DNA from: Strigamia acuminata
Taxonomy: Eukaryota > Arthropoda > Chilopoda > Geophilomorpha > Linotaeniidae
Assembly (NCBI GenBank): GCA_949358305.1
Contig: OX442317.1
Location: 9,862,186-9,926,185 of the forward strand
Length of the DNA stretch: 64,000 bases
Direction of reading: 5' to 3'
The notes below the pieces were generated by a model. That model saw nothing but the letters and a program-made list of their open reading frames with translations. It had not been told where the DNA came from and did no database searches. This document shows, in pieces, positions 8,351 to 42,949 of the stretch; within the stretch, counting starts at the first letter, position 1; each line of letters opens with the position of its first letter. The position numbers were made by a program, and so were the translations under genes.

Positions 8351-9383
8351 AATTAAAACTAAAGTTTAAAAAAACAAATAGGAAATAAGAAATGTTTTTC
8401 CTTTCTATTCAATTTTCAAACCTAGGCTATTTCTTGTTATTATCTTTCGGTGGTGCGAGCATTCCCCCTTTATTTCTGTCTCTAACTTGGACTGATTAGC
8501 CAATTAAGAAGGATAATGCACCTGATCATGCCAACCTAATTCTCTCCCCATTACTCCCCGTGGTCACTTGAGTGTTTTGAGGAGGAATCTGCTATTCGTA
8601 GGCCATTTTGAACTCGTTCAGACATGATTCGTTTGCTGTGCATTGCGCATTGTCTGGAATTTCTAATGAAAATAGTAAAGTTTTAAAATTACATATTTGC
8701 ACAAAAAGGTAATTTTGCTCAAAAAGTAGCATTATTGCACTGAAAAGTGCTTTCTAGCATTTCAAAGTTCATTTACGCACCAACTGTGCATTTGTGCACA
8801 TAAAAAGTTTAGTTGCAAGTTGAAAACTTTATGACAGACAAGCAACAAAGTGTCCTGGGCGTACAGTATTCAAATTTTAAAAGAATTGGACGTCGCAACA
8901 CACTCCAAGTCTTCAATAGCTAATGCTCGTGGCCCCATGTCAACTACACGCGCTGACCCGCGACTGCTTCGCTATCGCCACTGCAGCTGCTCTTCCTTTA
9001 ACCTTTAATCGGTGGCCCGCTGGGTTTGTGTGCTGAAGCTCCCCTGGTTCTATGCAAACTCCTTCGCATATTTTAGTCGAAGCAAATGCATTGTTTGTTT
9101 GTGCTCAGATTGCATGTTCGTCCTGAAAACGGCAATTTTTAGGCAGGAAACGTAGTTTTATACACCCAATCAGAATTTTAGACCAAGAAAATGAAGTTTT
9201 ATGTTTGTGCTCTGTTTTTTAAACAGTAAATTCAAATTAAGTCGCAAATTTGTCGTGTCACAAGAAAAAATTCAACCTTTGAACCAAAAAATGCATCCAA
9301 ATGCACAAAAATAGCTCATTTTACGCCAAAAAATGCATTTTTAAAAACAGATAATTTTATTCAAACCACATTTTCAAAACAAA

Positions 9384-9600
9384 TCACAAATCCATTTTTG
9401 CTAATTTCGTTTTTTTTGCTCTGAGTTTAGTCATTTGCTCGAAATCCGCAGGTCGCGCTGCCATATATTTCTCCATCACTTCGACATTCAAAACCTCCGG
9501 TACCATGTACGCTTTGAGCCAATTCACCAATGGCGTGGAACCACAGGTGTAGTGAGTTTCCTTATGGTTAAACAAAATGCCATCCAAATCGACTTCAAAC
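9384..9600 (-). pseudogene. Snurportin-1 C-terminal fragment
   Basis: A 67-codon minus-strand frame reproduces the last part of the snurportin-1 protein encoded at 28258-29211, with a few substitutions (FNHKETHY for FYHKETHY, AYMVPE for AYMLPE). Similarity stops near 9610, so the IBB and most of the cap-binding domain are missing. It is a truncated duplicate, not a functional gene. Confidence 0.85.
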
Positions 9601-9659
9601 TGCGCAGACGCAGAGACGTTTTTTATTCAAAACTTCGATTGTTGTTAGTAAAAATGTAA

Positions 9660-11793: not shown

Positions 11794-11954
11794 TTGCTTT
11801 ATTTTTAATAAACATACACACTTAATTACAAATTATTTTTCACTTGCCTTCTCTGTTCCAGAGAGTTCAAAACAGCTACAACACTGTATTCGGTTTAAAC
11901 ATGTAAGCAATTTTCACAGCAACAGCAGATCAGACTAATTTGTGGAAAGAATAT

Positions 11955-12447
11955 TGTTACGTGGCTAAATGGGGATTGATTTAGTCCTACGTGACATGAA
12001 TTCACTCAAGAATGACACAGGGTTTTATATGTAAAATGCCTGTTGGCTTTATTGTTCAAAGTCGGACATTTACTAATGTAAATGTTCGGTCATCAGCTCT
12101 TATTACATTTGTTCATTTATTAAACCTAAAACACATAAATGGTTCATTCAAATCAAATAAGGATGATGCTGTTGTTTATTCAATTCAGTTTAGGAAACCT
12201 AGTCCTGCCTGACCGTCAACCGGCTGGCAGTAGTAGGTGAAGGTAACAGTTTGAGACTCAAAAGAGATCTGAGCTCTCTGGCTTAATCAACTCACTAAGT
12301 AAACTCCTATTCCCCCTATCAACTAAGTTGAACGGTCTGTGCATCTAATTAGGTGCGCAGCGCCGTCTAGTGAGAATTCATTGCATTAAATGCCTAAACA
12401 GAGCGAGCAGAGCCAGCCGATACACGGTACGGCTCTACCGCGTAACA
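11955..12447 (-). repeat. 3' LTR of the Gypsy element
   Basis: It matches 20467-20959 base for base as far as I can read. The terminal inverted repeat is TGTTACG/CGTAACA. Identical 66-codon plus-strand frames in both LTRs are a by-product of the identity, not genes. Confidence 0.95.
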
Positions 12448-12460
12448 GCCCCCCCCTTTA
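12448..12460 (-). other. Polypurine tract of the Gypsy element
   Basis: On the coding strand the bases immediately before the 3' LTR read TAAAGGGGGGGGC. This is the expected position and composition of the plus-strand primer. Confidence 0.85.
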
Positions 12461-12856
12461 ATTTTTTCGGTCTCTCGAAAAACAATGAATTGTTCTAACT
12501 AACGCATCTCCTTTCACATTAAAAAATTCAAATCATAAACTCAATTTTACAATTTTGAGAATCTCTTTTCATCATCCTTATTTTTACAAAAATATAATAT
12601 GATACACTTTTCAATGTTTATAAATGTCATAGTCACTTTTTATTACATTTTTACATTGGAAACAATTTTCAAAGTTTAAAATTCAATAAAATTAACACTT
12701 TTCATCAATAATAACACTTTTTGGTTTTTTGTTTTATATTACTTTTTTTTCAAGTTTTCAATTTTCTATAAAATAAAAAAAACACACACACAAAAAAAAA
12801 TGTTCAAAGTTCGTGTTGATTTTACACTTATTCACTTAAAGAAGTTAAAGTTCACT

Positions 12857-14230
12857 TCACTCTCCTCCTTCCGCTTGATCCTTCTTATCTTCTTCCTTGA
12901 TCAACTCGAATGGGAGAATTTCACGATTTGCAATCTCGTACACAAATCGTAAGCGTAACTCACATGGCTCCCCAAACTGCATTAAGTCACGGTCTTCAAC
13001 ATATCTTCTAGTGAAGTAAAGTATGGTTGGGCCACAGCTGTCATTATCCAATTGGTGCATACGTGGCGGGTCCCAACGTATGAATTTGTTTGGAAACTTT
13101 ACTCCTGCATCCATCAACGAGTATCTTAAAGATTCCCACTTTGGATATGTGCGCTCTATTGGTCCGCTTGGGTCGTAAAGCACGTATTGGGTTGGCTTTT
13201 TCCGCCAATCCACTATGAAAAGCTGCCAATGCTCTTCAATAGGAACTGGAAACACCCAAATCTTCTTTTGAGCACTTGGAAGTCTCTTCATTAGCCAATA
13301 GATCGCTTCCTTTCGTTTAGCTGGGTCCACCATTTTGAAGACCCACTCAGATTGAATTGGTGCCAATATGGGATATCGTTCTTCTAACAGTTGGAGGTAG
13401 TGATCAACGACGCTGTCATACGTCCAGCTCTGTCGTCCCGGCGTTAGATCGCCTAATGCTGCCATCTGATAGTTCATGACTTTAATCGGCGGACAACCCA
13501 CGGCGTCGAATGCTAAGTCATATTTTGGCGCATTACTATAGTCTAATGCAAGTCCGAGAGCCTGGACCTGTCGTGCAGCGTCCAACTCCACACGGTATAC
13601 CCGTATAGGAGTAGGAAATACTACACTAGGGTCCTGGAAGGACTCTCTTCTCGCTAGGGCGATGGCTTTTAAAATATTTTTTCTTATTTTCGCCTCCTGG
13701 ATCAGCAAAGCATTCGCCCCTGTTCTCCACAACTGATAGTCGGGCAATCCCATCACTCCTTTTAATTTCCTGGCTCTAATGGCGTTGACCATATTCCGGT
13801 GCTCCATTCGCAAATCATTTAATCGGCGTTTGTTTCGATCAACGGTGTGACGCATTTCTTCTTCCCGGATTCTTTTTGATTGCTCGTCAAACACTTTCTT
13901 CTTTTGTGCTTTCTTATCTCGTTTCAATTGTCGATTCTTACGACGACGACGCAATAAGCCTTCTTCACCCTTTGTTAATGGTCCTGCATATTTCTTTTTG
14001 TCTTCCTCCGCCTTTTGTTTTCCTTCTGTAAACGGGCGTGGGCAGTTAACCAATTCGTCCAAAGTTTTACTTGTGCTCGGCTTATTTGCTAAATAAATTT
14101 CCAAGTCATCGCCTTTCTTAAGTTGACGTTCCAAAAGATCGCCCACTTGCATCGAGCAAACCGAATCCGCATCGCTGTCACTGTCACTACGCACATCCAT
14201 CCGATCAAATTTGCTTGCCATTTCGTCCAT
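12857..14230 (-). CDS. Gypsy ORF3: Ulp1/C48-type cysteine protease in env position
   Basis: This 457-residue protein lies between pol and the 3' LTR, where errantiviruses carry env. No signal peptide or membrane segment is visible. Residues 1-60 are acidic with an SDSDSDADS run, and residues 75-145 are very rich in Lys/Arg and probably helical. From about 265 the sequence follows the Ulp1/SENP fold. His334 lies in EEHWQLFIVDW, Asp353 in YVLYDPSG, Gln393 in MHQLDNDSCG and Cys399 in the same motif. The catalytic His-Asp-Cys triad and the oxyanion Gln are therefore all present. C48 enzymes cleave SUMO, NEDD8 or related isopeptide bonds, and related adenain-type proteases process viral proteins. 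The substrate here is unknown. The frame is uninterrupted, and a 3' splice-site-like sequence sits a few bases upstream of the ATG, suggesting a spliced subgenomic mRNA. Confidence 0.9.
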   Translation of the reverse strand: MDEMASKFDRMDVRSDSDSDADSVCSMQVGDLLERQLKKGDDLEIYLANKPSTSKTLDELVNCPRPFTEGKQKAEEDKKKYAGPLTKGEEGLLRRRRKNRQLKRDKKAQKKKVFDEQSKRIREEEMRHTVDRNKRRLNDLRMEHRNMVNAIRARKLKGVMGLPDYQLWRTGANALLIQEAKIRKNILKAIALARRESFQDPSVVFPTPIRVYRVELDAARQVQALGLALDYSNAPKYDLAFDAVGCPPIKVMNYQMAALGDLTPGRQSWTYDSVVDHYLQLLEERYPILAPIQSEWVFKMVDPAKRKEAIYWLMKRLPSAQKKIWVFPVPIEEHWQLFIVDWRKKPTQYVLYDPSGPIERTYPKWESLRYSLMDAGVKFPNKFIRWDPPRMHQLDNDSCGPTILYFTRRYVEDRDLMQFGEPCELRLRFVYEIANREILPFELIKEEDKKDQAEGGE

Positions 14231-14645
14231 TCGGATTCTAATATATTATTTGAAAAGAAAATAAAATAAATTAATTCATTAATTCAAAATATTCACAAAA
14301 TTATTCCAATTTTCATTCACTATTTCATTTAACATTTCATGTTGCACTAAATTACACTAAATTTAACAATTCTTCAACTAATTAGTCACTTGATAATATA
14401 TGCACACACTAAAATTTCATTTCGAAGATTTAACACAATTATTTAAGTTTAAATTTCCATTTCGCGATGTTATTTTCTCACAAAATTCGCGATAAATTCG
14501 TTTCGTTTTTAAGCTATTTGTTCGCCAAATTCGTTCAAAATCCACTCCTTTCACTTACGGAATCACACACAAATCAACTGCTGCTGTTATTAATGCTTTA
14601 GGTTTCTTTGAGTCACACAGTAAACCCGGTTCGTCTCAGAAAACC
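14231..14645 (-). promoter_or_regulatory. Pol-ORF3 spacer with candidate splice acceptor at 14238
   Basis: On the coding strand the sequence CAAATAATATATTAG ends at 14238, and the ORF3 ATG (14230) follows after seven bases. That is a plausible 3' splice site for a subgenomic ORF3 mRNA, analogous to env mRNA. The rest of the spacer is AT-rich, with no ORF. Confidence 0.5.
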
Positions 14646-17600
14646 TTAACACAATCCACTGTAGTCACGACGAGCCTGTTTGCGAAGGCGACGTGACCGG
14701 AAACTCTCGATTTCAGGCGGCGACGCGTCATCGACTGCGTCAGCGACACCTGTCGGCGGTTTTCGCAATTGATTTTCTTTGTTTTTCCGTTCGTCTTCGT
14801 TTTGCCATCTTTCCATAATTTCTTTCGGTCCATAGAGCGCTTTTAATCGCTCTTTTTCGCTTGGAATTGGGAAATTTGACACTTTTATTGTATTTTCTTC
14901 AGGTTCAAAGAGTGTTTTTAACGAAATTTGATCGTCATCGCTAATGAATCGTTCTTTAGCGATCGGAATTGGCGAAGTTGATGTGTTTTCTTCAATTTCT
15001 TGTTGTTTTTCACTCTGTGTTGCAGTTTCATCAGCAAATGTGACTTTTTTAGCCGTCAATTCTTCTAATATCTCCGCTGGAATTTCTTCTCTGGGTTTAT
15101 ACGGTTTTAATCGTTCAATATTAACAATATCTGTTTTCTTTCCATTTGAGCTTCTAATTTCATAGTCATTTGGCGCGGTTCTTCTTACTATTTCGTATGG
15201 GCCTGAGAACTGTGGTAGGAGTTTTTCACTTAACCCAACTTTTCTATTGGGTGTTTTGAGATATACTAATTCTCCTGGGTCAAATTCCACATGGACTCGG
15301 CCTTGATCGAATCTTTTTCTGCTTTTTTCTCCTTGCCACTCCAACCTTTCATTTGCTATTTTCCTAGCTTCTCGGATGAATTTTGAGGTTCGCAAGGTAA
15401 ATTCTTTTTGAGGTAAGTTGAGGTTTACGTCCACGTTCAAATCAACTTCATATCCTTTCAAAAGATAATAAGGTGTATATCCTGTCGTCTCGTGCACACC
15501 GGTATTATACGAGAAAAGCAAAAATGGCAAAAAATCATCCCAGTCCCTCTGGTCCTTATCAACATAAATCTGCAACATTTTTGCAAACGTCGCATTAAAA
15601 CGCTCAGTAAGTCCATTGGTCCTTGGATGGTACCCTGAAGTGGTTTTGTGTAGGGCTTTAAACATATTTGATACTTCTTCCACCATTTTGTTTCTGTATT
15701 CTGTGCCTCTATCGCTCAGGATTTCTCTCGGACTGCCTTCCTTCAACATTAACTCATAAAGCAAGGTTCTAGCTGCTTCCAACGCTGTTGATGCTGGAGC
15801 TGCTCTAGCAATCACTGTCCGCGACAAATAATCTGTCATTACGAAAACATACTTGTTGCCCTTTTCGGAGGTTGGAAAACTTCCCAGTGTGTCGATTCCA
15901 ATCCTCTCGAAAGGCTTAGATATCGTAGACCACGGCTGCATTAAACCTTTTGGCGCTGTCGTCATTGATTTCGAGCTCGCGCAATGTGGACAAGAAAGTA
16001 CGTAATTTCTAACGTCTTTATATATCCGGGGCCAGAAGAATCTTGTTCTCATTCTCTTCCATGTTTTGTTTAGGCCCAAGTGAGCACCCGTCAGTCCATC
16101 ATGCATTTCTTCAAGAACGGCCGTTTTCAAATGCTGTGGAACGTATAACAGATTTACTTCCGTGTCTAGGGAATTCAAAGAATTTTTCTTCCTAAACAAC
16201 ACGTTATCGAGAAGGACGAACTGCTTTAGAGGACGTCTTCTCTTCTTCGGAAGTTGCTCTACTTGATTCATTGCGGTGATCAATTCCAGTAGCTTCTTGT
16301 CCTTACGCTGCTCAGCAGGAAGGTCGAGCTGTTCGAGTAAAAGTGAGGGAACTATTTCGTTTTCTTCCTCGCTTAAATCTTCTGGAATTCTGCTCAAGGC
16401 GTCGGCATCTTTGTGCGCTTTTCCGCTCTTGTAGATCACATCGAAATCAAAATCTACTAGCTGTAGGCTCCATCTAGCTAGTCTGCCATTGGGGTTTTTG
16501 ACTGATTTTAGCCATTGGAGTGCCGAATGGTCTGTAATTATCTGGAACTTCTTACCATACAGATAAGGTCGGTACTTTTCAATTCCAAACAGAATAGCCA
16601 GACATTCCCTTTCTGTGGCTGTGTAATTCTGTTCTGCTTGGCTGAGAAGTCTACTGGCATAAGCTATCACATGTTCTTGTTTGTTTATCTTCTGTTTCAA
16701 CACTGCTCCAAGACCATATGCGCTCGCGTCAGTCGATACCATGAAGGGTTCTTCAAAATTAGGGTGCGCAAGCACTGGCACGGTGATAAGGGCGGTCCTT
16801 AATGTTTTAAAGGCCTTGTCATGAGGTGGGCCCCAATCAAATTTCTCGTCCTTCTTCGTCAAATTGACTAAGGGCTTGGATATGTCCGCAAAACCTGGAA
16901 TGAACTTCCTGTAATACGAACAGAGCCCTATGAATCCTCGAAGAAGTTTGAGGTTAGTAGGAACTGGAAACTTTGCGACCGATTCCAAGTTCCTAGGGTC
17001 TGGTGATATACCCTCAGAGTCCACGACATGTCCCAAATACTTAATGGTGTTTGTCCCAAATGTGCACTTGCTCAACTTCACCTTTAAGTTAGATTGTCTT
17101 AGCTTGTCGAAAACGTTGTCTAGATCTTTCAAATGCTGATCGAATGTTTTAGAGAAAATGATAAGGTCGTCAATGTACGCTATACAGACTTTGCCTAGGA
17201 GGTTGCCTAAAACTTTATTCATTAACTTTTGAAAAGCCGCTGGACTATTGCATAATCCCATTCCTAGGACGTTAAACTCAAAATGTCCGCTTGAAGTGGT
17301 AAATGCTGTTTTTTCGCGATCTTGTTCATCTATTTCGACTTGATAATATCCTTGAATAAGATCCATCATGGAGAAGAACTGTGCACCTGCCAGCTGATCT
17401 AAAGTGTCATCTATTCTTGGCAATGGGTACACCATTTTCTTTGTTATCGCATTCAAACGTCTCCAGTCGACACAAAATCTCCACTTACCATCTCTTTTCT
17501 TTATTAGCAATACAGGCGCGCTCCAGGGACTTTCTGATTCCCTTATCACTCCCATATCAAGCAATTTCTTTGTTTCCTCAGCTTCGACTTCTTTTTCCTT

Positions 17601-18590
17601 CATAGAACGACGATACGGTTGCAAATGTATTGGTTCATGGTCTCCAGTATCGATTTTATGCTTATACACTTGAACTCTTCCCAAATCCTTGTCAGAAACA
17701 GCAAATCTGTCTTGATTCTTTTGAAGAAGTTGTCGCATTTGCTCTTGTTGGTCTTTATTCATTTTGTCTTTTGCTATTGAGGCGTCAAAGTCAAAACAGT
17801 GTACCTGTTTTTCATCAAACACCCCAACATCAACCACATAATAAGCTTTTGCGATTGCTGACTTCTCCTTCAGAAAGACTGTCTTCTTGGTTGGGTTAGC
17901 CACTCGAATGATGCCTTTGCCATTCTTGAAATCTGTCAAAGTTTTACAACCTATCACAGCAAATCTATCAGTAACATTATGCAATGGTTGCACAAACATG
18001 TCCAATGTTATTGCTTTATTCAAATAGATGGGAACAATGCATTCGTGCATTGGTGGTATAGTGATGTTTTTCATTACCCTCGCAACATAATTCTGATCAA
18101 CAAAAGTTTTATTCATTGGAAATGACACTTCCTTTCCACTAGTTCGGCCCACAAAGATTTTTTGTTTGTCGTAGTCTAACACACACTTCGCGAACAGCAT
18201 GAATGGGTCACTTAGCAGTAATTCATAATGAAATCCTTTAACAATCAGGACCTCGATCCTGTATGTTAATTCACCAATTGTAATGTTCATCTTGGTTTTT
18301 CCTATTGGAGTCACAAGTTCTCCGCTTACCCCTTGTAATCGTATATTTGGGCTTGGCGGGTACTTCAACTGTAAAGCTTCAGCAAGCTCTTCGCTGATAA
18401 CATTGCGTTTTCCTCCAGTGTCCATAACTGCCTTGACTTCCATGTTGTTCACTATTACTGGAATTTCCAATAGAGATTCTGAAATGTTCATATTGACTAC
18501 GATTATCTTTTCTTTTCTACTTTTTCTTTTCTTCTTTGGATGACAACATCTTCCTTGTTGATGGTGACATCTTCTTTGTGGCCGACCCAC
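14646..18590 (-). CDS. pol: Gypsy Pol polyprotein (PR-RT-RNaseH-IN)
   Basis: 1314 codons are open from the gag stop. The aspartic protease has DTG at 57-59. Reverse transcriptase runs from about 340 to 540, with PWSAPVLLIKK, a catalytic YIDD at 472-475 and the FNVLGMGLCNSPAAFQ substrate segment. RNase H begins around the STDAS motif (Asp621). The integrase zinc module has His830, His837, Cys867 and Cys870, and its catalytic triad is Asp900, Asp960 and Glu996. A Lys/Arg-rich tail follows. The frame opens with GTG at 18590, overlapping the last base of the gag stop codon. Pol lies in the -1 frame relative to gag, so it is probably made by -1 frameshifting rather than started at that GTG. No inactivating change is visible. 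Confidence 0.95.
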   Translation of the reverse strand: MGRPQRRCHHQQGRCCHPKKKRKSRKEKIIVVNMNISESLLEIPVIVNNMEVKAVMDTGGKRNVISEELAEALQLKYPPSPNIRLQGVSGELVTPIGKTKMNITIGELTYRIEVLIVKGFHYELLLSDPFMLFAKCVLDYDKQKIFVGRTSGKEVSFPMNKTFVDQNYVARVMKNITIPPMHECIVPIYLNKAITLDMFVQPLHNVTDRFAVIGCKTLTDFKNGKGIIRVANPTKKTVFLKEKSAIAKAYYVVDVGVFDEKQVHCFDFDASIAKDKMNKDQQEQMRQLLQKNQDRFAVSDKDLGRVQVYKHKIDTGDHEPIHLQPYRRSMKEKEVEAEETKKLLDMGVIRESESPWSAPVLLIKKRDGKWRFCVDWRRLNAITKKMVYPLPRIDDTLDQLAGAQFFSMMDLIQGYYQVEIDEQDREKTAFTTSSGHFEFNVLGMGLCNSPAAFQKLMNKVLGNLLGKVCIAYIDDLIIFSKTFDQHLKDLDNVFDKLRQSNLKVKLSKCTFGTNTIKYLGHVVDSEGISPDPRNLESVAKFPVPTNLKLLRGFIGLCSYYRKFIPGFADISKPLVNLTKKDEKFDWGPPHDKAFKTLRTALITVPVLAHPNFEEPFMVSTDASAYGLGAVLKQKINKQEHVIAYASRLLSQAEQNYTATERECLAILFGIEKYRPYLYGKKFQIITDHSALQWLKSVKNPNGRLARWSLQLVDFDFDVIYKSGKAHKDADALSRIPEDLSEEENEIVPSLLLEQLDLPAEQRKDKKLLELITAMNQVEQLPKKRRRPLKQFVLLDNVLFRKKNSLNSLDTEVNLLYVPQHLKTAVLEEMHDGLTGAHLGLNKTWKRMRTRFFWPRIYKDVRNYVLSCPHCASSKSMTTAPKGLMQPWSTISKPFERIGIDTLGSFPTSEKGNKYVFVMTDYLSRTVIARAAPASTALEAARTLLYELMLKEGSPREILSDRGTEYRNKMVEEVSNMFKALHKTTSGYHPRTNGLTERFNATFAKMLQIYVDKDQRDWDDFLPFLLFSYNTGVHETTGYTPYYLLKGYEVDLNVDVNLNLPQKEFTLRTSKFIREARKIANERLEWQGEKSRKRFDQGRVHVEFDPGELVYLKTPNRKVGLSEKLLPQFSGPYEIVRRTAPNDYEIRSSNGKKTDIVNIERLKPYKPREEIPAEILEELTAKKVTFADETATQSEKQQEIEENTSTSPIPIAKERFISDDDQISLKTLFEPEENTIKVSNFPIPSEKERLKALYGPKEIMERWQNEDERKNKENQLRKPPTGVADAVDDASPPEIESFRSRRLRKQARRDYSGLC

Positions 18591-19921
18591 TAGTTTTCCT
18601 CTTCTTGTTGACCTTGTTGTGGGTTCTGCTTAGGATTAGGGTTAGTTTTACCACCCCCTTGTGTCCTTTTCTTCTTAAACCACCTTTTGTTGTTTGGGTT
18701 CCCTCTATTCTCTTGAGGTTGTTGCTCCTGTGGCGCTGATGTGTTATGTTCACAACCATAACGATGCCAACATCCACATGAACGCGTTGTTGTCGGACTG
18801 CTATTTGACCGTTGTCTACCTCTGTTATATCTACCTCTAAAGTTCTGTCCGCGCTGCGATGCTGGAATATACCACTCGCCTTGTATGAATAATGGAACCG
18901 ATTGTTGTGGCTCTACTGACTCACTCACGAGCTTTTGCTGTTTTAATTTGATATTTTCAGCTAATAACTCGGCGTAGCTTACTGGGGATCCCCCTGTTCC
19001 AGACAGTATACCTGTTGTCGTAGGGTTCACCTTTTCATCTACAACTTTTTTGAACATTGTGAGCAGTAGATCCGCTGGTTCCTCTGTTTTGTGACTTTCA
19101 TACAATTTAAGTCTCTGTTCCATTTCTTCTAACGTCGATGGAAATACTGTTATCATCATCTTCTGCATTGCAGGCTTCAAACCTTGGTAAACATAATTTA
19201 TTTTCTGAATTTCAGTCATTTCTGGTAGAATAAACGCACATTCGGCCAAGACTTTCTTCATGAAGGCATCTGCTGTACCCTCTTTATGTTTCATGAAGTG
19301 GAGAGTATTGTAAACATTTTCTTGGCTTCTTCTAAATTTTTTCTCGATCTGTGGTTTCCAATCCGTCCATTTCCATGTCGGATTCTTCTTTAGTTGTTCC
19401 ACAAACCATGCCAATCCATCAGTCTTTAAGGCTAATGCTAGATGTTTTACCCTCTCATCATCTGTTCCTATTGTAGCTTCATATGCCACAAGCCATTGGT
19501 CGATGTTGCCCTTTTCTGTATCATAAGTGACAACAGGTCGCTTCTGCACTACCAAACTCTTCAATAAGTCGGTCAATACGTCCGTTGGAGTCTGTGATGA
19601 TGTCATTTTTGGAAAATTTGGTTCAATTGGTGTTGGAACTGGTTTAGTCTTTACTGGTGTAAATGTCTTTATTATTTCTTCTAAACCTTTTTGTGGAATT
19701 AATTTTATTAACGGAGTAGCGAAATCCAACTTCTGTAGGATTGATTGAGGTTGAGATCGGACTTCTCTATCTTCCTTCTGAGGTTCAGTGTCAGATTCAG
19801 ATCCAGTGTTCCTTTTCTTTCTAGTAGCGATAAATTTCAAATCCGGTTCGGGCAATTCCCAATTTTGTAAATCTTGAAGATTATCCGTATTAAACTGCGA
19901 CAATTTTATTGGCTTAGCCAC
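18590..19921 (-). CDS. gag: Gypsy Gag
   Basis: The 443-residue structural protein starts at the first ATG after the leader. Residues 110-290 carry the capsid-like core (WLVAYEATIG, LAWFVEQL, KFRRSQENVY motifs typical of retrotransposon Gag). The C-terminal third is Gln/Asn/Arg-rich, with RG repeats around 350-365 and a compact Cys/His cluster CGCWHRYGCEH. The cluster resembles a zinc knuckle but does not fit the canonical CX2CX4HX4C spacing. Gag should form the cytoplasmic particle and package the RNA. The stop TAG at 18590-18592 overlaps the pol frame by one base. Confidence 0.9.
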   Translation of the reverse strand: MAKPIKLSQFNTDNLQDLQNWELPEPDLKFIATRKKRNTGSESDTEPQKEDREVRSQPQSILQKLDFATPLIKLIPQKGLEEIIKTFTPVKTKPVPTPIEPNFPKMTSSQTPTDVLTDLLKSLVVQKRPVVTYDTEKGNIDQWLVAYEATIGTDDERVKHLALALKTDGLAWFVEQLKKNPTWKWTDWKPQIEKKFRRSQENVYNTLHFMKHKEGTADAFMKKVLAECAFILPEMTEIQKINYVYQGLKPAMQKMMITVFPSTLEEMEQRLKLYESHKTEEPADLLLTMFKKVVDEKVNPTTTGILSGTGGSPVSYAELLAENIKLKQQKLVSESVEPQQSVPLFIQGEWYIPASQRGQNFRGRYNRGRQRSNSSPTTTRSCGCWHRYGCEHNTSAPQEQQPQENRGNPNNKRWFKKKRTQGGGKTNPNPKQNPQQGQQEEEN

Positions 19922-20450: not shown

Positions 20451-20464
20451 CCGCATCTCCACCA
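20451..20464 (-). other. Primer-binding site of the Gypsy element
   Basis: Two bases after the 5' LTR the coding strand reads TGGTGGAGATGCGG. It starts with the TGG that pairs with a tRNA CCA end. The same block is retained next to the related LTR remnant at 24585-24598. I could not name the tRNA with confidence. Confidence 0.7.
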
Positions 20465-20466
20465 GT

Positions 20467-20959
20467 TGTTACGTGGCTAAATGGGGATTGATTTAGTCCT
20501 ACGTGACATGAATTCACTCAAGAATGACACAGGGTTTTATATGTAAAATGCCTGTTGGCTTTATTGTTCAAAGTCGGACATTTACTAATGTAAATGTTCG
20601 GTCATCAGCTCTTATTACATTTGTTCATTTATTAAACCTAAAACACATAAATGGTTCATTCAAATCAAATAAGGATGATGCTGTTGTTTATTCAATTCAG
20701 TTTAGGAAACCTAGTCCTGCCTGACCGTCAACCGGCTGGCAGTAGTAGGTGAAGGTAACAGTTTGAGACTCAAAAGAGATCTGAGCTCTCTGGCTTAATC
20801 AACTCACTAAGTAAACTCCTATTCCCCCTATCAACTAAGTTGAACGGTCTGTGCATCTAATTAGGTGCGCAGCGCCGTCTAGTGAGAATTCATTGCATTA
20901 AATGCCTAAACAGAGCGAGCAGAGCCAGCCGATACACGGTACGGCTCTACCGCGTAACA
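20467..20959 (-). repeat. 5' LTR of the Gypsy element
   Basis: The partner of 11955-12447, identical by eye, followed by the right-hand ATAT flank. It should hold the promoter for the genomic RNA. Confidence 0.95.
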
Positions 20960-21169
20960 ATATTTTTGTTTAAATTTCGTAAAATAGATTTGGAATAAAA
21001 AATTTAATTTTTCTTATAGATTTGGTTTGTATTTAATTCTAATAAAAACACTTGGCTTTTAATTTCATCACTAGTCCAATCTGTATTTTTTTTTTAAAAA
21101 AAACATACAGTTAAAGTGTATGTGGACAAACCCCAGCACACGTTTATTGTATCCTTTTATCTCTTTCTC

Positions 21170-22469: not shown

Positions 22470-22591
22470 TATACTAAAAATTCGAAATACCAGGTCCTTG
22501 ATTTTACCAAACAATGAGTAAAGCTGGTAAAATAATGTTACCACTTACTGTCTTTGCAATACATTTAGATTAAATCAGTATTAGTGACAGA

Positions 22592-22910
22592 AGAAAATTG
22601 AAGAAAATTGACTAAAATCTTTGAATTTTATAAGAAAATTGACTAAAATCTTTGAATTTTATAAGAAAATTGACTAAAATCTTTGAACTTTATAAGAAAA
22701 TTGACTAAAATCTTTGAACTTTATAAGAAAATTGACTAAAATCTTTGAACTTTATAAGAAAATTGACTAAAATATTTAAACTTTATAAGAAAATTGACTA
22801 AAATCTTTGAACTTTATAAGAAAATTGACTAAAATCTTTGAACTTTATAAGAAAATTGACTAAAATCTTTGAATTTTATAAGAAAATTGACTAAAATCTT
22901 TGAATATTAT
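22592..22910. repeat. Minisatellite, 31-bp unit, about 10 copies
   Basis: The unit reads roughly AAGAAAATTGACTAAAATCT followed by TTGAATTTTAT, repeated head to tail with rare substitutions (TTGAA[T/C]T; one ATATTTAAA variant). It directly abuts a family B copy. Confidence 0.9.
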
Positions 22911-22914
22911 TGAA

Positions 22915-23690
22915 TTCTCTTTTTTTTTATTCTTCTTTAAGAAAAATGCCACATTACTGATTATGATGTAACCATCAAAAAACACTATTGGAAACCCATT
23001 GGGTCATTTTGACCAGTCTAGCTGTTCTAATGTTAAACTAAAATATTTGTAAACCTTTAGAGAAGCTTTCACTTTTTTCAAAATAACTTTCTCCAGAGTT
23101 GCAAAAATCCTCATAAGATTAACGAATGCAAGAGAATTTTTTTGCGTTTGGAAAACAACAACATGGTGGAAAGTTGTTTTCGTTTCTTGTGTGTTCAGTT
23201 TGGTTAATACCCAACTTTTTATTGTCTCTTATTAGAATCCTTTTATCTCTTTGTCTTGATTATTTCCACAATTTCTCCTGACTGTTGGTTTTGCTTCATG
23301 CTCTCCAAAAGGAGGAGTGATGCAGGCCTAATCTTGATTCGAATTGGAATGAATAATTCTTGTATAGGAGCAGAACTAAATATATATTTTTTGTACAGTC
23401 TGGGTTTGGTTGGTCTAATTTCCCAAAAATCCAACTGTTGTGGAAAACCTCCGGTTTACAAAACACATTGTGGCGAAAAATCACGATTTTCCCAATAGCA
23501 GTTATAAAATTGCAAACAAAAATAACTTCTTGTTGCCCTATGCACATGGCTGAAAATCAGCAAAATTCATTTAAGATAGAGCATCCCTAGCTAAAGGAGA
23601 GCTCTGCTTAGCATAATGTTGGTATTGTACGACTGCACAATGCAGCATTTACCAATCAATTTGTCATGAATATTTATTTATTAATATCTC
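22915..23690. repeat. Dispersed repeat family B, copy 3
   Basis: Contains the 'aaaatgccac...gattatgatgtaa' block, the AACCCATTGGGTCATT block and the 3' TGGGTTTGGTTGGTC block in the family order. Confidence 0.7.
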
Positions 23691-26724: not shown

Positions 26725-28250
26725 ATTCTGTTTTGGCCATTTATACAAATGCCTATAAAAAAAAATAATAGAGAATGACAAAAAAAAGTGCGAAATAAAG
26801 ACCAAAAAGCACATGCTGTACAGTAGTACATACAGTATATAGTTTTGCGGCTTTTAAGTTATTAGATGAAATTTCGACCCAAACAAATTCTTTTTTCATT
26901 TTACACATTTTTTTAATCTCTTTTTAATTCGAACTCGAAGTTGTTCTGTACATTTGTAATCGTCTTTCGACAGACAAGCAACAAAGTGTCCTGGACGTAT
27001 TCAAATTTTAAAAGAATTGGACGCCGCAACACACTCCAAGTCTCCAATAGCGAAATAATAGTTATTTCATCCTATGCTCGTGGCCCCCAGTGCTGGACTG
27101 GCCCGTAGCCCGTTCTTAGCCCACCGTAGCCTGGGAGGAGTGCGCTAACAACAGCATTCATTCGATTTCTGCATTTCAATGTGCATCAGTTGTTTGAACA
27201 GCATTCAGAATTCATTGAACCAACCCTTGATGAGATAACTTATTAGTTATTACGTTTTCGTATTGATATAATCCACTCAGGAGAGAGGCAGAGGTTTTTA
27301 CATATGATTTGCAATGCTATGACTTGCTACTGTTTCTTTTTTTTAATATAGGTTTTCCATGTGTTTTAAAATTGGAAATTAATTAAATATTAGCGAGAAA
27401 AATATATACAATTGCATTCATTTATGTTTTCTGAACTTTACCGTATTTAATTTCGTGCTAAAAGACATGCCAGCATCTGCTTTCAAGTTTTGTCCATTGT
27501 ATTTAGCATTGCATTGTTTGAGACTTACTTGACAGTCGAATTTTCCACCCAGCGATCCAATTTTCGTTTTATACATATCCATAATCTTTTGGTCGTTCAA
27601 CAGCAGAGGTTGTGCATGTGCATTTTATGACGATGCCACAAATACAAACAATACGATACGCTAAACAATCATCGGTCACGTGACTCGATCAGCACGAGGC
27701 GAGGTGAACAGCTATACTCTTTTCACACTCAAGAGTGACCCTGGAAGCTGGGCTCCCATTGGCCGAGCCATTTAACTTGTGTAGCAGTAGTTTCATTGCA
27801 GTTCTAAGTAGGCCAATGGGAGCCCAGCTTCCAGGGTCACTCTTGAGTGTGGAAAGAGTATAGATTCTAGATTTGGGTGGCCCGCTGGGTTTGTGTGCTG
27901 ACGCTCCCCTGGGTCTATTTCAAAGTTTTGTCTGTCTTGGTGTATGGTGTTGTGTGTCCTTCGCATATTTTAGTCGAAGCAAATGCATGTTCGTCCTGAA
28001 AACGGCAATTTTTAGGCAGGAAACGTAGTTTTATACACACAATCAGAATTTTAGACCAAGAAAATGAAGTTTTATGTTTGTGCTGTGTTTTTTAAACAGT
28101 AAATTCAAATTACGTGGAAAATTTGTCGTGTCACAAGAAAAAATTCAATCTTTGAACCAAAAAATGCATCCAAATGCACAAAAATAGCTCATTTTACGCC
28201 AAAAAAATGCATTTTTAAAAACAGATAATTTTATTCAAACAACATTTTCA
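26725..28250. other. Non-coding flank of snurportin-1, partly duplicated at 7.9-9.4 kb
   Basis: It contains the second copy of the collinear duplication, a half hAT-MITE (near 27087), a hairpin MITE at 27715-27860 and a doubtful 60-codon minus frame at 27418-27600 starting from a TTG. No gene is supported. Confidence 0.5.
27715..27860. mobile_element. Hairpin MITE (146 bp), TA target, TACTC termini
   Basis: About 50-base inverted repeats with one or two mismatches face each other across a ~45-bp spacer. The outer ends are TACTCTTTTCACACTC and its complement, flanked by TA on each side. The long arms end in CTCCCATTGGCC and its complement. The termini resemble the elements at 58952 and 60600. 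No coding capacity. Confidence 0.85.
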
Positions 28251-28257
28251 AAACAAA

Positions 28258-29211
28258 TCACAAATCCATTTTTGCTAATTTCGATTTTTTTTCTCTGAGT
28301 TTAGTCATTTGCTCGAAATCCGCAGGTCGCGCTGCCATATATTTCTCCATCACTTCGACATTCAAAACCTCCGGTAGCATGTACGCTTTGAGCCAATTCA
28401 CCAATGGCGTGGACCCACAGGTGTAGTGAGTTTCCTTATGGTAAAACAAAATGCCATCCAAATCGACTTCAAACTGCGCAGCCGCACACATCACGCGATG
28501 CAATTCCGAAGCCGAGTATCGAAAATACTGCAACGGAACAAACCTGAACTGATTAGTCGATGTTATCTGAGAAATCTCGGGTATTTCCGACAACTTATCA
28601 TTGAGCCAATAAAACCGGAACTCGGTCTCGGAATCGGTCACCGGATTTCCCTTCCAACACTTAACATCGAGAACATAAAACGTGCGCTCGATCTCGCTGA
28701 AAACGCAATCCAAACTCGTGTATCCGTATCCTCCCTTCATCTGTTTTCGCTTACTCCCGCCTGGAAGATGCGAGGAAAACTGTTTCAGAAAATATCCGCC
28801 TCGAGTATGGGCGCTCGTTTGGCCCCGATTGGTCGTGACCAGGCATCGACGACCGACCGGACAGAGCATGAAATACCAATTCTCGGCCAAATCAGTCGGA
28901 ACTTCGACCAGCCATTCCGATAACATTAACCGGTCGCGTTTTATCTTTTTTTTCGTTTGTTTCGATTGTTTCCATTGCATCGGTTCTTCTTCTTCCTTCT
29001 CCTCTTCCTCTTCATTAACATTTCGTCTTGTGTTCACCAATTTGTCTCGACGTCGTTTCTGTTCTTCTAAAAGTCGTTCCCGTCTCGTTTGTTGGTCCGA
29101 ATTTTTGTGTTTGACTTTGTATTGAGAGAATCGCGGGTGAGGTGCGTGCGGGTTGTTAGGTGTTTGCGTCACTTGGAAACTCGTTGCCATTGCTTCTGTC
29201 AGGGCGTCCAT
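28258..29211 (-). CDS. SNUPN: Snurportin-1 (U snRNP import adaptor)
   Basis: The 317-residue, single-exon protein binds the trimethylguanosine cap of spliceosomal U snRNPs and brings them to importin-beta. I start it at the ATG at 29211 (MDALTEAMATSFQV), which aligns with the vertebrate start. The frame is open 32 codons further upstream, but that extension has no counterpart. The N-terminal importin-beta-binding segment lies at about 22-62 (HPRFSQYK, then RRERLLEEQKRRRD, NTRRN). An acidic Glu run follows. The cap-binding domain starts near LMLSEWLVEVP and includes CPVGRRCLV, YVLDVKCWKG and FRFYWLNDKL. The end has HYTCGSTPLVNWL, a region that should help hold the cap. The family is shorter here at the C terminus than in human (~360 aa). 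A truncated copy of the 3' end lies at 9384-9600. Confidence 0.95.
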   Translation of the reverse strand: MDALTEAMATSFQVTQTPNNPHAPHPRFSQYKVKHKNSDQQTRRERLLEEQKRRRDKLVNTRRNVNEEEEEKEEEEPMQWKQSKQTKKKIKRDRLMLSEWLVEVPTDLAENWYFMLCPVGRRCLVTTNRGQTSAHTRGGYFLKQFSSHLPGGSKRKQMKGGYGYTSLDCVFSEIERTFYVLDVKCWKGNPVTDSETEFRFYWLNDKLSEIPEISQITSTNQFRFVPLQYFRYSASELHRVMCAAAQFEVDLDGILFYHKETHYTCGSTPLVNWLKAYMLPEVLNVEVMEKYMAARPADFEQMTKLREKKSKLAKMDL

Positions 29212-29309
29212 CTTGTTTGTTGAAAGGAAATCTTTCGTAATGCTGTTAAAATGACACAAACGTCTATTTATACTGGAAAATAAAGCCATACAACGTTCGT
29301 ACGACATTC

Positions 29310-30085: not shown

Positions 30086-33133
<3,048 letters not shown>

Positions 33134-35975: not shown

Positions 35976-36426
35976 TGTCAATCTATAAACCGTAGGTGAG
36001 TGCATGTGTGGAAGCAAAACAGCATCTTTACTTTCTGCAAAGCCATCTAACCATGGAGGCCGCCATCTTTATTGCCAAACAGTAAGTCATCAAGTGATAC
36101 ATGGGTTAGAGGCTAACTGCCAACCAACTAACAGTAGAACAAATCATCCACACAGTGGTTGATTTGTTCTTTACAAACAAAACATCAACTAAATACAATT
36201 CCAGTACTCACACTGGATAAAAACCGGGGCAAACTAATAGATAAACTAAAAACCCAAGCAGACGACAGTCTGGATAACACCGTAAAACATGTGTTGATTG
36301 AATTTGCAAGACAATCAACACTCGACCTCGAGACATAACACAATGCTAAACAGACACGCGCCATTGCCGCACTAATTCGGAAAGGTGCGACGTATCACAC
36401 CATATGACGGATCCAAAATCCCAACA
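35976..36426 (-). repeat. 3' LTR of the RT-less Copia
   Basis: Pairs with 40863-41313 without visible differences. On the coding strand the adjacent bases 36427-36440 read GATCAGAGGGGGCAT, a polypurine tract. Confidence 0.93.
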
Positions 36427-36506: not shown

Positions 36507-39500
36507 TTATCGTCGCGCCCCGAAAATACTATTGCCAAGGGTCACAAGACGTGGACGTGCCAGCCATTTGGTCAGCAAGTCCGCCACGTTATTCTCTCCC
36601 ATAACATGTTTGATATCACCATTTGTAATCCAATAATCTGCGGTCTGGCATTCCTCCGACCGCATAACGGACGCTCCCTTTCGTAAACGTATTAATCTTT
36701 TCCATTCATTTCTTTTGCCACAATGAACTCCCTCTTCAGTCAACGCTTTGATTTTCTTCATTATCCCTTCCCATTCATTACTTCTCTCAACTTGTGCAAC
36801 ATCCTTATCAGTATCAGGCCTTATCATGCAGCACAATGAGAAAGGAGTGCAACATGAACATGTACACAATGCGAATGGGTTTTCAGGCTCGTCCTTTAAT
36901 GACGTAAACTCGAACAAGCTCGCATCGTACTCAAAGCCGTTATTTTCGCACCAAGCTAGGATTTCAATCCTGCTCCTTAATCTAGTCTTGTCTGGTGCCA
37001 CGTACGATGTACACGGTCTTCCTTTATCACGACCTGACTTCCTCGTATACTCAAATCTTTGCCACTCATCAATATTCAGGGGCAACAGCCGTTGTCCCCC
37101 AACATCCCCCGGGCCCCCTCTAATGTTCTTAGTAACCCGTACGGCCTGCTCATACTCTTCTTCATCTTCCGACTGTGTCGGGCTCTGCTCTGCAGGCGCT
37201 TCTGCCGTTCTCGGCCTCAATGTGGGTTTGGGGGTCGTGGGTAATGGCGGTTTCGCCGGTTTTGTCGGTAAGACCCCTCCAATAGGGGCTTCTCTCTCTA
37301 CCTGTTGAACAGGTGCTCGCTGCGCAATTTCTTGCGCTACCTGCTGGGCAGGTTTCACTTTGGGTGCCTGTTGCACCATTTCTTTCACCGGCTCGAGTTT
37401 AGCCGCTGGTGGGGGCACTTTAACTGCCCTCGGGGGTGACGGAGGTGGTGTCGCCACCACACTCTCCTCGTCCGACTCAAAACCGTCTTGCGCGGTGTAT
37501 ATGAAATCTCCATTCCATTCCGTTCCTACCCCCTCTGATTTCTTAAACACCTCCTTGTTATAGACTTTATCGTTCCAATATTCTTCCTCAATAATTTTGA
37601 CGTGTTTTGAACTGACGACACGCCTATTTTTATGGTCCCAGATCCGGTAACCCGTGGTATTAGTACCATATCCTACAAGGGCCCCAGCCCATGCCCTTTC
37701 TTGTAATTTGCCTTGTCTAACTTGGGCCGGGATGTGTACATAGGTCTTCGAGCCTATGCAACGCAAGTGTCTCACGGACAGCTTCTTGCCCCAAAACACA
37801 TTATACGGGGCTTTGGAATTTAACTTGGGATGGGGGAACCTATTTTTCAGGTACACTATAGTGCAGACTAATTCCGCCCATAAATAACTCGGAAACTCAT
37901 TTTCCAGCATCATCGCTCGTGCACCTTCTAGTATCGTTCGGTTGGCTCTTTCAGCCACCGAATTGGACTCTGGGGAATAGGGATTGGTTCTTTCGCATTT
38001 GATGCCTTCCTTCTGGGCATATATGTCCCACGCCTTTGACGTGAATTCCCCTCCGTTGTCCGTTCGTATGCGCTTAACTTTCCGTGATGTCATTCTCTCG
38101 ATTTCCCGCTGCCAGGGCTCAAAATGTGCTAATACATCGCCCTTTCTTTTCATTATTCGAATCCACATATAACGTGAATAGTCGTCAATAATAATTAAAT
38201 AGTAGCGGCCCCCGCCTAACGAGTTCACCTGCGAGGAGCCCCAAACATCCATGTGGACTAGCTCTAAAGGTCCACTTGTGGAAATCTCCCCTATCGGGGT
38301 GAAGCTAGCTCTAGTGAGCTTTCCCCTAATACAGTGCTCACACTTGCCCATATCTTTATTGGCTAGCTTAACTCCACATATGTCGGTGGATCTCGACATT
38401 GACACGATCCCATTCGTGTTCAAATGGCCGAATCTCCCATGCCAAAACTCCATGTCTAATGGCTTGTCGTTGTAGACTCGTTGTCCAGCCATTTCTTGCT
38501 GTTGTCGACCACCGTTCCCATTACTAACATTGTTAACCAACAACCCCCTCTCACTCAAACTCTTTTTGTTTGCGCCAGACTGCAAAACGTCGCTATGATT
38601 GCGCAAATCGCCATTTTCGTTATTATTAACGCTGGTTTCGGGTTTGGTTAATTCGCTCTTATGACTAGTATGGGTTAGTAACTGTACATTTCCACCAGTG
38701 CTCTGGTTATCTGCCGCAAGCGCATCCTGTTGCGCAGGAATTGCACTTGCGTTCACATTTGGTAAAATCACTCTACAATTAGTTTTATACATTCTGTCGC
38801 TTTGCCGCGTTGCTCGTAAAATCGGCTGCGTAATCCTGTTTTTGAAGGAGACCAACTTTCCTTCAGCAATGCGGGTTACATACCCGGCCTCATCAATTCT
38901 GCCTAGACTCATTAAATTCCTCACAAAATTCGGGGCATAATATACATTCTTCAATGTAACAAACCCGCCAGGCACTTTTTCACCTGAATCTAATCTTAAG
39001 TCCCCCACTCCTGCTATTTTAGAGGACCCTTCCCCTAAATGAACGTTAATGTTCGTTAAAGGCCTATAATTGATGAGCCCATCTTTGCTGAAAGTGAAGT
39101 GATCCGTCGCCCCGGTATCAACATACCAGGCGGGATCCGGCGCTCCGCACGTCACGTATGAGCGTAATGGCAAATTATTTTGCCTTTGACTTTCGTCCAT
39201 CGACACGTAGAATAATTTGGGACTGTCTCCCACGTTGCAATTCAATGTTTCCTCTTGTCTAATCATTAGAGCAACGTGTGCAGATGGCTCCTGTGCGCAG
39301 GACGCACCCAAACCACGGTCAACATCTTTTTCATCACTTGAACTGTCCATTTCTGATGATGACATGTCCATAGGCTCCTGGACACGTGGTGGGTGCAGCC
39401 TGTCCCACTCTCTTAACAGTTCAACCCGGATCTTTTCGGGAATAAAATCTTCGACTGGCCACGACTCAATTCCTTCTTTGCATTCCTCGAACTCCGGTCC

Positions 39501-39677
39501 GAGGAAGTCCATATACTGGAAAGCCACATCAATGTCGTGCAATTCCAGCCCCTCTGCATTAACTTCGATTGCTTTCTGGTCGACTCGATCCAGAAATGAG
39601 TATATCGACTCATTGTCGTTGCGTTTGAGGTCTAAAAACTCTCGCCTCAGTCTAGCTCTGTCAAATCTATCCGCCAT
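36507..39677 (-). CDS. Copia Gag-Pol with MBD-like segment, RT/RNaseH core deleted
   Basis: From the ATG at 39677 (MADRFDRARLRREF) the frame is open for 1056 codons. It has a Copia-type Gag domain (about 1-100), an acid protease with DTG at ~187-189 (WYVDTGATDHF), the GAG-pre-integrase zinc module (FWHGRFGHL ... CEHCIRGK), and an integrase core (MDVWG, TDNGGEF, PESNSVAERANRT) with the usual PYNVFWGKK tail. A Pro-rich linker leads to residues ~870-924, which resemble a methyl-CpG-binding domain (EW, RKSG, Y, AP, LRSRIEI, SLFEF). Only the first residues of the RT module (EWEGIMKKIKAL) and the very end of RNase H (HVMGENNVADLLTKW) remain, so some 450 residues including YVDD are gone, yet the frame stays open. 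The 66 codons upstream of this ATG are also open but outside the Gag homology. Confidence 0.88.
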   Translation of the reverse strand: MADRFDRARLRREFLDLKRNDNESIYSFLDRVDQKAIEVNAEGLELHDIDVAFQYMDFLGPEFEECKEGIESWPVEDFIPEKIRVELLREWDRLHPPRVQEPMDMSSSEMDSSSDEKDVDRGLGASCAQEPSAHVALMIRQEETLNCNVGDSPKLFYVSMDESQRQNNLPLRSYVTCGAPDPAWYVDTGATDHFTFSKDGLINYRPLTNINVHLGEGSSKIAGVGDLRLDSGEKVPGGFVTLKNVYYAPNFVRNLMSLGRIDEAGYVTRIAEGKLVSFKNRITQPILRATRQSDRMYKTNCRVILPNVNASAIPAQQDALAADNQSTGGNVQLLTHTSHKSELTKPETSVNNNENGDLRNHSDVLQSGANKKSLSERGLLVNNVSNGNGGRQQQEMAGQRVYNDKPLDMEFWHGRFGHLNTNGIVSMSRSTDICGVKLANKDMGKCEHCIRGKLTRASFTPIGEISTSGPLELVHMDVWGSSQVNSLGGGRYYLIIIDDYSRYMWIRIMKRKGDVLAHFEPWQREIERMTSRKVKRIRTDNGGEFTSKAWDIYAQKEGIKCERTNPYSPESNSVAERANRTILEGARAMMLENEFPSYLWAELVCTIVYLKNRFPHPKLNSKAPYNVFWGKKLSVRHLRCIGSKTYVHIPAQVRQGKLQERAWAGALVGYGTNTTGYRIWDHKNRRVVSSKHVKIIEEEYWNDKVYNKEVFKKSEGVGTEWNGDFIYTAQDGFESDEESVVATPPPSPPRAVKVPPPAAKLEPVKEMVQQAPKVKPAQQVAQEIAQRAPVQQVEREAPIGGVLPTKPAKPPLPTTPKPTLRPRTAEAPAEQSPTQSEDEEEYEQAVRVTKNIRGGPGDVGGQRLLPLNIDEWQRFEYTRKSGRDKGRPCTSYVAPDKTRLRSRIEILAWCENNGFEYDASLFEFTSLKDEPENPFALCTCSCCTPFSLCCMIRPDTDKDVAQVERSNEWEGIMKKIKALTEEGVHCGKRNEWKRLIRLRKGASVMRSEECQTADYWITNGDIKHVMGENNVADLLTKWLARPRLVTLGNSIFGARR
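36906..37070 (-). other. MBD-like domain within the Copia polyprotein
   Basis: The segment starts DEWQRFEYTRKSGRDKG and ends DASLFEF. Against the MBD of MBD1-type proteins it keeps the Trp, the RKSG turn, the following Gly, the central Tyr, the [S/A]P, the LRS..E motif and the final LFxF. Residues that contact methyl-cytosine in MBD1 (an Asp and a Tyr in the central strands) appear to be Cys and Ser here, so methyl-specific binding is not assured. Domain identity is by eye. Confidence 0.65.
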
Positions 39678-40862: not shown

Positions 40863-41313
40863 TGTCAATCTATAAACCGTAGGTGAGTGCATGTGTGGAA
40901 GCAAAACAGCATCTTTACTTTCTGCAAAGCCATCTAACCATGGAGGCCGCCATCTTTATTGCCAAACAGTAAGTCATCAAGTGATACATGGGTTAGAGGC
41001 TAACTGCCAACCAACTAACAGTAGAACAAATCATCCACACAGTGGTTGATTTGTTCTTTACAAACAAAACATCAACTAAATACAATTCCAGTACTCACAC
41101 TGGATAAAAACCGGGGCAAACTAATAGATAAACTAAAAACCCAAGCAGACGACAGTCTGGATAACACCGTAAAACATGTGTTGATTGAATTTGCAAGACA
41201 ATCAACACTCGACCTCGAGACATAACACAATGCTAAACAGACACGCGCCATTGCCGCACTAATTCGGAAAGGTGCGACGTATCACACCATATGACGGATC
41301 CAAAATCCCAACA
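40863..41313 (-). repeat. 5' LTR of the RT-less Copia
   Basis: Identical by eye to the 3' LTR, followed by the second AATCC target copy. It should hold the promoter. Confidence 0.93.
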
Positions 41314-42905: not shown

Positions 42906-42949
42906 AGGGGCACCAGACATTTCTCTTGTTTGTCTATTCTATAATCCGC

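What the first reader, a model, noticed from the sequence alone, without database searches (positions are those of the whole stretch)
12857..14230. A Ty3/Gypsy element that carries an intact Ulp1/SENP-like protease where env should be
Seen: a structurally complete Gypsy (identical LTRs, TSD, PBS, PPT, intact Gag and Pol) has a third 457-codon ORF with His334, Asp353, Gln393 and Cys399 in the C48 motif context (EEHWQLFIVDW, LYDPSG, QLDNDSCG) and no membrane segment. Known: third ORFs of Gypsy elements are usually envelope proteins, and C48-type proteases occur in Mutator-like and other DNA transposons and, as adenain relatives, in Polintons. I do not recall an LTR retrotransposon with one. Inference: the enzyme could strip SUMO or a ubiquitin-like modifier from host silencing or nuclear-import factors, or act as a second maturation protease. 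Purifying selection is suggested by the intact triad in a young element.
Basis: partly seen in the sequence, partly recalled or inferred. Interest (0 to 1): 0.95.

Follow-up and report, generated by a model that had tools for sequence, protein, structure and literature searches.

The report
Gypsy retrotransposon carrying a SUMO-protease gene
A family of jumping genes in what looks like an arthropod genome carries, where related retroviruses keep their envelope gene, an intact gene for a SUMO-removing type of protease, which may help the element escape the host's silencing.

The parts
20960..20963 (.). target-site duplication ATAT, 5' side of the element
   Evidence: NTAT duplications also at 7 of 10 other copies examined
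20467..20959 (-). 5' LTR, 493 bp, TGTTACG...CGTAACA
   Evidence: identical to the 3' LTR
20451..20464 (-). primer-binding-site-like TGGTGGAGATGCGG
   Evidence: close variants follow the 5' LTR in other subfamilies; tRNA not identified
18590..19921 (-). gag frame, 443 codons, first in-frame ATG at codon 106
   Evidence: tblastn 36-58% identity to Gag of divergent lineages
14646..18590 (-). pol frame: aspartic protease, RT, RNase H, integrase with p58/SH3-type C-terminus
14238..14269 (-). pyrimidine-rich stretch ending in AG, 7 nt upstream of the ORF3 ATG: possible 3' splice site for a subgenomic ORF3 mRNA
   Evidence: suggestive only (score 0.71 in the window), no conserved donor found
12857..14230 (-). 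ORF3, 457 aa: helical N-terminal half plus Ulp1/SENP-type cysteine protease domain (residues about 212-440; His334, Asp353, Gln393, Cys399)
12448..12467 (-). polypurine-tract region next to the 3' LTR
11955..12447 (-). 3' LTR, 493 bp
11951..11954 (.). target-site duplication ATAT, 3' side

Best explanation
ORF3 is a catalytically competent Ulp1/SENP-type (clan CE, family C48) protease that this group of Ty3/Gypsy elements keeps in the env position as a separately expressed, exchangeable module. Supported by sequence and prediction: the fold, the full catalytic set, conservation across lineages, purifying selection, signs of modular exchange, and repeated loss in derivative copies. Inferred: it is made from its own, probably spliced, mRNA; it enters the nucleus; and it removes SUMO (or a related modifier) from host proteins that carry out transcriptional silencing of transposons, for example factors of the SUMO-dependent piRNA/SetDB1 pathway of insects. 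Such a product would act in trans, which would explain why ORF3-deleted copies with open pol frames can spread as freeloaders. I put about 0.95 on the enzyme's identity, about 0.7 on its acting on SUMO-like conjugates, and about 0.45 on the anti-silencing role as the main function.
Against: No activity, expression, localisation or target is shown. 77 of 144 related pol rows have no listed ORF3 within 5 kb, so ORF3 is not needed in cis. In yeast, loss of the host deSUMOylase Ulp1 itself raises Ty1 RNA, so more deSUMOylation need not mean more transposon activity. The NLS pattern is absent from 5 of 17. No conserved splice donor was found and the acceptor signal is modest. The window's own ORF3 has no Pfam C48 match. 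Model confidence is lowest in the protease domain just around Gln393/Cys399 (block pLDDT about 58-60). The N-terminal half has no identified relative.
Confidence: 0.5

Rival explanations
1. ORF3 is a second maturation protease that processes Gag, Pol or a capsid protein, as adenain-type enzymes do in adenoviruses, poxviruses and Polintons.
Confidence: 0.12
2. ORF3 removes ubiquitin or NEDD8 rather than SUMO and protects the element's own proteins from degradation.
For: Clan CE enzymes differ in specificity: XopD and NopD structures with SUMO and with ubiquitin and Den1/NEDP1 with NEDD8 all match the model. Retroelement proteins are degradation targets (general knowledge).
Against: The SENP1/2/3/5 and Ulp1 group is nearest by sequence and fold. 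ORF3-less copies fit either reading.
Confidence: 0.2
3. ORF3 mainly assists nuclear entry or integration, for example by deSUMOylating import or pore-associated factors or integrase itself.
For: Basic stretches in the N-terminal half in 12 of 17 members; yeast Ulp1 sits at nuclear pores and affects Ty1 (PMC8585004).
Against: A factor needed for each integration would be hard to lose, yet 77 of 144 pol rows have no listed ORF3, unless it is supplied in trans.
Confidence: 0.15
4. ORF3 is a passenger gene captured by chance, decaying and without function for the element.
For: ORF3-less copies exist.
Against: Catalytic set invariant in 17 of 17 members down to 32% identity to the window's; dN/dS 0.07-0.16; 79 of 94 rows without stops.
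Confidence: 0.03

Closest known systems
Cellular SENP1/SENP2/SENP5 and yeast Ulp1 (peptidase family C48)
   Different: About 14-20% identity in the structural alignments, its own N-terminal half, encoded inside an LTR retrotransposon
Errantiviruses / insect endogenous retroviruses (gypsy/gypsy clade)
   Same: LTR-gag-pol-third ORF-LTR order; possible spliced third ORF; third ORF that can be lost
   Different: Third ORF is a protease without a membrane segment, not env-F (env-F as described in PMC12992720, passages). Clade of the present element within Gypsy was not determined
Ginger1 DNA transposons with a C-terminal Ulp1 domain
   Same: Gypsy-like integrase together with an Ulp1 domain (PMC2836005, passages)
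   Different: Ginger1 is a cut-and-paste DNA transposon with TIRs and a fused domain; here there are LTRs, RT and a separate ORF
NeSL and Utopia-1_TSP non-LTR retrotransposons of nematodes with an N-terminal Ulp1-like protease
   Same: A retrotransposon with an Ulp1-like enzyme (PMC4640811, passages)
   Different: Non-LTR class, domain fused to the RT protein, nematodes
KIU/VANC genes of plant Vandal MULEs; CryptonF and CryptonS of oomycetes
   Same: Ulp1 domain kept by a mobile element; in Vandals it sits in an anti-silencing (VANC) gene (PMC13317346; PMC3212892; passages)
   Different: DNA transposons; the review calls the role of the Ulp1 part unknown
Bdelloid rotifer LTR retrotransposons with enzymatic ORF3 (GDSL esterase, DEDDy exonuclease)
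   Same: Enzyme in place of env, modular gain (PMC5408684, abstract and passages)
   Different: Different enzymes; the words SUMO, ubiquitin and Ulp do not occur in that text

Membership tests
Ty3/Gypsy LTR retrotransposon | PR-RT-RNaseH-IN order in pol | tested here: met
Ty3/Gypsy LTR retrotransposon | LTRs with TG..CA ends, TSD, PBS, PPT | tested here: met
   primer tRNA not identified
Peptidase C48 (Ulp1/SENP) | His-Asp-Gln-Cys catalytic set in motif context | tested here: met
   17 of 17 aligned members, aligned with SENP1
Peptidase C48 (Ulp1/SENP) | Ulp1/SENP fold | tested here: met
Peptidase C48 (Ulp1/SENP) | Match to Pfam PF02902 | tested here: inconclusive
   Window's protein has no match at E<=1; 15 of 17 members match at E<=1, best 1.2e-4
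Peptidase C48 (Ulp1/SENP) | Cleaves SUMO precursors or conjugates | not testable with these tools
   needs an enzyme assay
Errantivirus (env-bearing Gypsy) | Third ORF is an envelope with membrane anchor | tested here: not met
   Highest hydropathy mean 0.72, 1.53 in the family; protease fold instead
Ginger1 DNA transposon | TIR-flanked transposase gene without RT | tested here: not met
   LTRs and RT present
Adenain-type maturation protease of Polintons and adenoviruses | Conserved GG-type cleavage sites in the element's own structural proteins | tested here: inconclusive
   GG pairs in the Gly-rich Gag tails of 6 of 6, but no shared column in all six (best 3 of 6); Pol 3 of 5, at the aspartic-protease motif
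Adenain-type maturation protease of Polintons and adenoviruses | Nearest fold is a viral protease | tested here: inconclusive
   In the viral library the best matches are phaeovirus proteins (E 1.9e-6, 6.8e-5) and adintovirus adenain comes at E 0.19; cellular SENPs lead in PDB

The most novel reading that the evidence does not exclude
A clade of animal LTR retrotransposons has replaced the envelope by a SUMO protease that disarms SUMO-dependent (piRNA-type) transcriptional silencing for the whole family, and this anti-silencing module is swapped between elements and lost by freeloading copies much as env is in retroviruses.
Probability: 0.35. Interest if true: 0.88.

Novelty: new variant of a known kind. 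Interest (0 to 1): 0.74.

Why it matters
Ulp1-type domains turn up repeatedly in unrelated transposons with no settled role. An LTR retrotransposon with the domain as a stand-alone gene, in many young copies with divergent lineages side by side, both ORF3-bearing and ORF3-deleted, makes the question testable: do transposons use deSUMOylation against host silencing? SUMO is required for piRNA-guided silencing in Drosophila, so the substrate pathway is already known and assays exist.

Tried and rejected
Protein database search with ORF3 alone and with the 17-sequence alignment: no hit at E<=10 among the about 8000 candidates scored each time. The same database holds arthropod Gypsy pols (Cordylochernes, Trichonephila, Amblyomma; highest listed identity 54%; PF02902 in none of the 120 listed rows), so the miss is informative but no proof of absence: stand-alone ORF3s are often not annotated and remote relatives sharing no 5-residue word are missed. 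Viral contigs: no confirmed relative for ORF3 or pol. The prokaryote genome contigs were not scanned and no metagenome scan was available. Rfam: no hit in the window. Single-sequence structure prediction was poor (pTM 0.26) and was not used.

Host donor of ORF3: ten other C48 stretches of this genome, out of 29 PF02902 rows, were compared with the ORF3 profile; they score weakly (best 19 bits). They are exon-size fragments and 19 rows were not looked at, so a host donor is not excluded; no close one was seen. Copies derived from spliced RNA, which would show the ORF3 splice junction: five loci with ORF3 and broken or missing pol were checked; none showed a leader-to-ORF3 junction. Splice donor in the leader: no conserved strong site. 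A conserved GG cleavage site in Gag or Pol: GG pairs exist but none is shared throughout. The poxvirus and ASFV protease folds are more distant; families absent from the fold list are not thereby excluded.

Full report
What is there. On the minus strand of the window lies a Ty3/Gypsy element from 20959 down to 11955: identical 493-bp LTRs, ATAT duplications, a PBS-like and a PPT-like sequence, a gag frame, a pol frame with aspartic protease, RT, RNase H and integrase, and, 415 bp after the pol stop, an ATG-initiated 457-codon ORF3 at 12857-14230. The genome carries TTAGG arrays, one at the start of contig C1, which is the arthropod-type telomere repeat (general knowledge); the genome (237.5 Mb, 157 contigs) is not named by the tools, so the host is inferred only.

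It is a family trait. Searching the own genome with ORF3 lists 94 rows, a lower bound (93 of 507 candidates scored; a few copies appear as two rows); 8 rows score as the identical protein, the window's own included, and 79 of 94 contain no stop. Searches with two other members list 95 and 103 rows and show further lineages. Of 20 loci fetched, 18 have a Pol match with the ORF3, two (L020, L027) none; full-length Pol of divergent lineages is 69-75% and Gag 36-58% identical to the window's; several loci are truncated or nested. Ten loci were examined for LTRs: seven (L013, L015, L017, L018, L021, L025, L028) have LTR pairs with hits of 494-583 bp at 99.6-100% identity and 4-bp NTAT duplications; one (L026) gave a broken pair at 89%, two (L010, L012) none. 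The seven are young insertions.

Selection. Nei-Gojobori dN/dS: of 12 ORF3 pairs, 6 have computable dS and give 0.069, 0.071, 0.110, 0.134, 0.151 and 0.162 (the last with dS near 3, so unreliable); 6 are saturated. Pol gives 0.069-0.083 in 4 of 6 pairs. In four ORF3 pairs cut into an N-half and a protease half, both halves are constrained (0.06-0.17). ORF3 is therefore kept as a protein under clear constraint, somewhat weaker than pol.

Module behaviour. ORF3 and pol-core trees of 13 elements share their deep branching, so ORF3 has mostly travelled with pol. But between L017/L018 and L021/L026 nucleotide identity in 300-base steps is 0.89-0.96 over most of the pol end examined, declines through its last part and the spacer, is 0.60-0.67 across ORF3 and about 0.8 after it; ORF3 synonymous sites are saturated (pS 0.76-0.81) while pol dS of L018 against L026 is 0.42. 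Of six pairs compared, L013/L012 and L010/L015 show a milder dip and the two within-subtype pairs none in ORF3. I read the first case as a recombination mosaic, comparable to envelope exchange in retroviruses; the decline is gradual rather than a sharp breakpoint, and no formal recombination test was run.

Copies without ORF3. A search with the integrase C-terminus lists 144 rows (144 of 3715 candidates scored). By coordinates 67 have a listed ORF3 within 5 kb downstream and 77 do not. Among the 51 rows at >=91% identity, the window's own subfamily, 42 have it and 9 do not (recounted). The ORF3 lists were capped, so 77 is an upper bound. Four of the 77 were fetched, one from each of four subfamilies: all four lack ORF3 through different deletions, starting about 52-190 bp before the ATG and ending between about 137 bp before the end of ORF3 and 25 bp after it, with short repeats at the junctions; three keep a remnant of the ORF3 C-terminus. 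Their listed pol frames are 1312-1360 codons. So ORF3 has been lost repeatedly and is not needed in cis for spread. This counts against ORF3 as an essential cis-acting replication enzyme and fits a product that acts in trans; it equally allows ORF3 to be merely helpful.

Expression. In 12 of 17 loci an acceptor-like site (pyrimidine-rich plus AG) scoring >=0.8 on a simple scale of my own lies within 60 bp before the ATG, against 30 of 153 control windows in the same non-coding stretches; the 17 loci are not independent, and the window's site scores only 0.71. No conserved donor was found. A spliced subgenomic mRNA is likely by analogy with env but not shown.

Mechanism. In Drosophila ovaries depletion of SUMO-pathway enzymes releases a Panoramix-tethered reporter and derepresses transposons (PMC8733420, passages); [quoted passage not shown] in yeast, mutants with decreased SUMOylation raise Ty1 RNA (PMC8585004, abstract and section 8). 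In the same yeast work loss of Ulp1 itself raises Ty1 RNA, explained by its authors through decreased SUMOylation, which shows that the direction of effect cannot be taken for granted. An element-encoded, possibly nuclear deSUMOylase would weaken SUMO-dependent silencing. Basic NLS-like runs are present in 12 of 17 members. All steps after the protease identity are inference.

Literature. Ten text searches were made; eight bear on prior reports of this combination, and for only 20 of 24, 15 of 22 and 15 of 52 papers were listed. They gave Ulp1 domains in Ginger1 (PMC2836005), NeSL/Utopia non-LTR elements (PMC4640811), Cryptons (PMC3212892) and plant MULEs (PMC13317346), all seen as passages, but no LTR retrotransposon. 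The library holds open-licence papers only, and Repbase could not be searched, so an unpublished, paywalled or database-only example may exist. Enzymes in the env position are known in bdelloid rotifers (PMC5408684, abstract and passages).

Verdict. Real, intact, conserved and under selection; a new combination of two known kinds rather than a new kind of enzyme or element. The function is open but directly testable.

Noticed in passing
window 36510-39875 (-), repeat arms near 35976-36275 and 40863-41162: A copia-type element whose polyprotein frame carries a methyl-CpG-binding domain match (PF01429, E 9.2e-7, residues 936-993) near its C-terminus; an accessory, possibly chromatin-targeting, module.
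   Followed up: no
window 18590-19921 (-): The Gag frame matches three other lineages from its first codons on yet has no in-frame ATG before codon 106, suggesting a spliced upstream exon or a non-AUG start.
   Followed up: partly
L039, L040, L041, L042: ORF3-deleted derivatives with long open pol frames in four subfamilies, each with a different deletion bracketing ORF3.
   Followed up: yes
L013, L015, L017, L018, L021, L025, L028 and window: All eight insertions with clean ends have an NTAT target-site duplication, suggesting a target preference.
   Followed up: partly
L029, L031, L034, L036 leaders, and variants in others: A TGACTCA-like motif, as in GGTGACTCATTG, recurs some 210-270 bp after the 5' LTR in several subfamilies; possible AP-1-type, packaging or splice-donor signal.
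   Followed up: no
window 28258-29307 (-): Snurportin-1-like protein frame (PF21974 E 3.4e-71); 9111-9612 repeats part of this region (27984-28486) at 95-98%.
   Followed up: no
G000 C1:47590268, C4:16988389, C6:13670386, C9:7231089, C56:6440, C1:13498094: Six matches with identical Peptidase_C48 score inside 1075-codon open frames elsewhere in the genome: probably another, unrelated mobile element with a C48 domain.
   Followed up: partly
window 42100-42979, 30433-30852, 22539-22972: Tandem arrays with 20-, 21- and 31-bp units.
   Followed up: no
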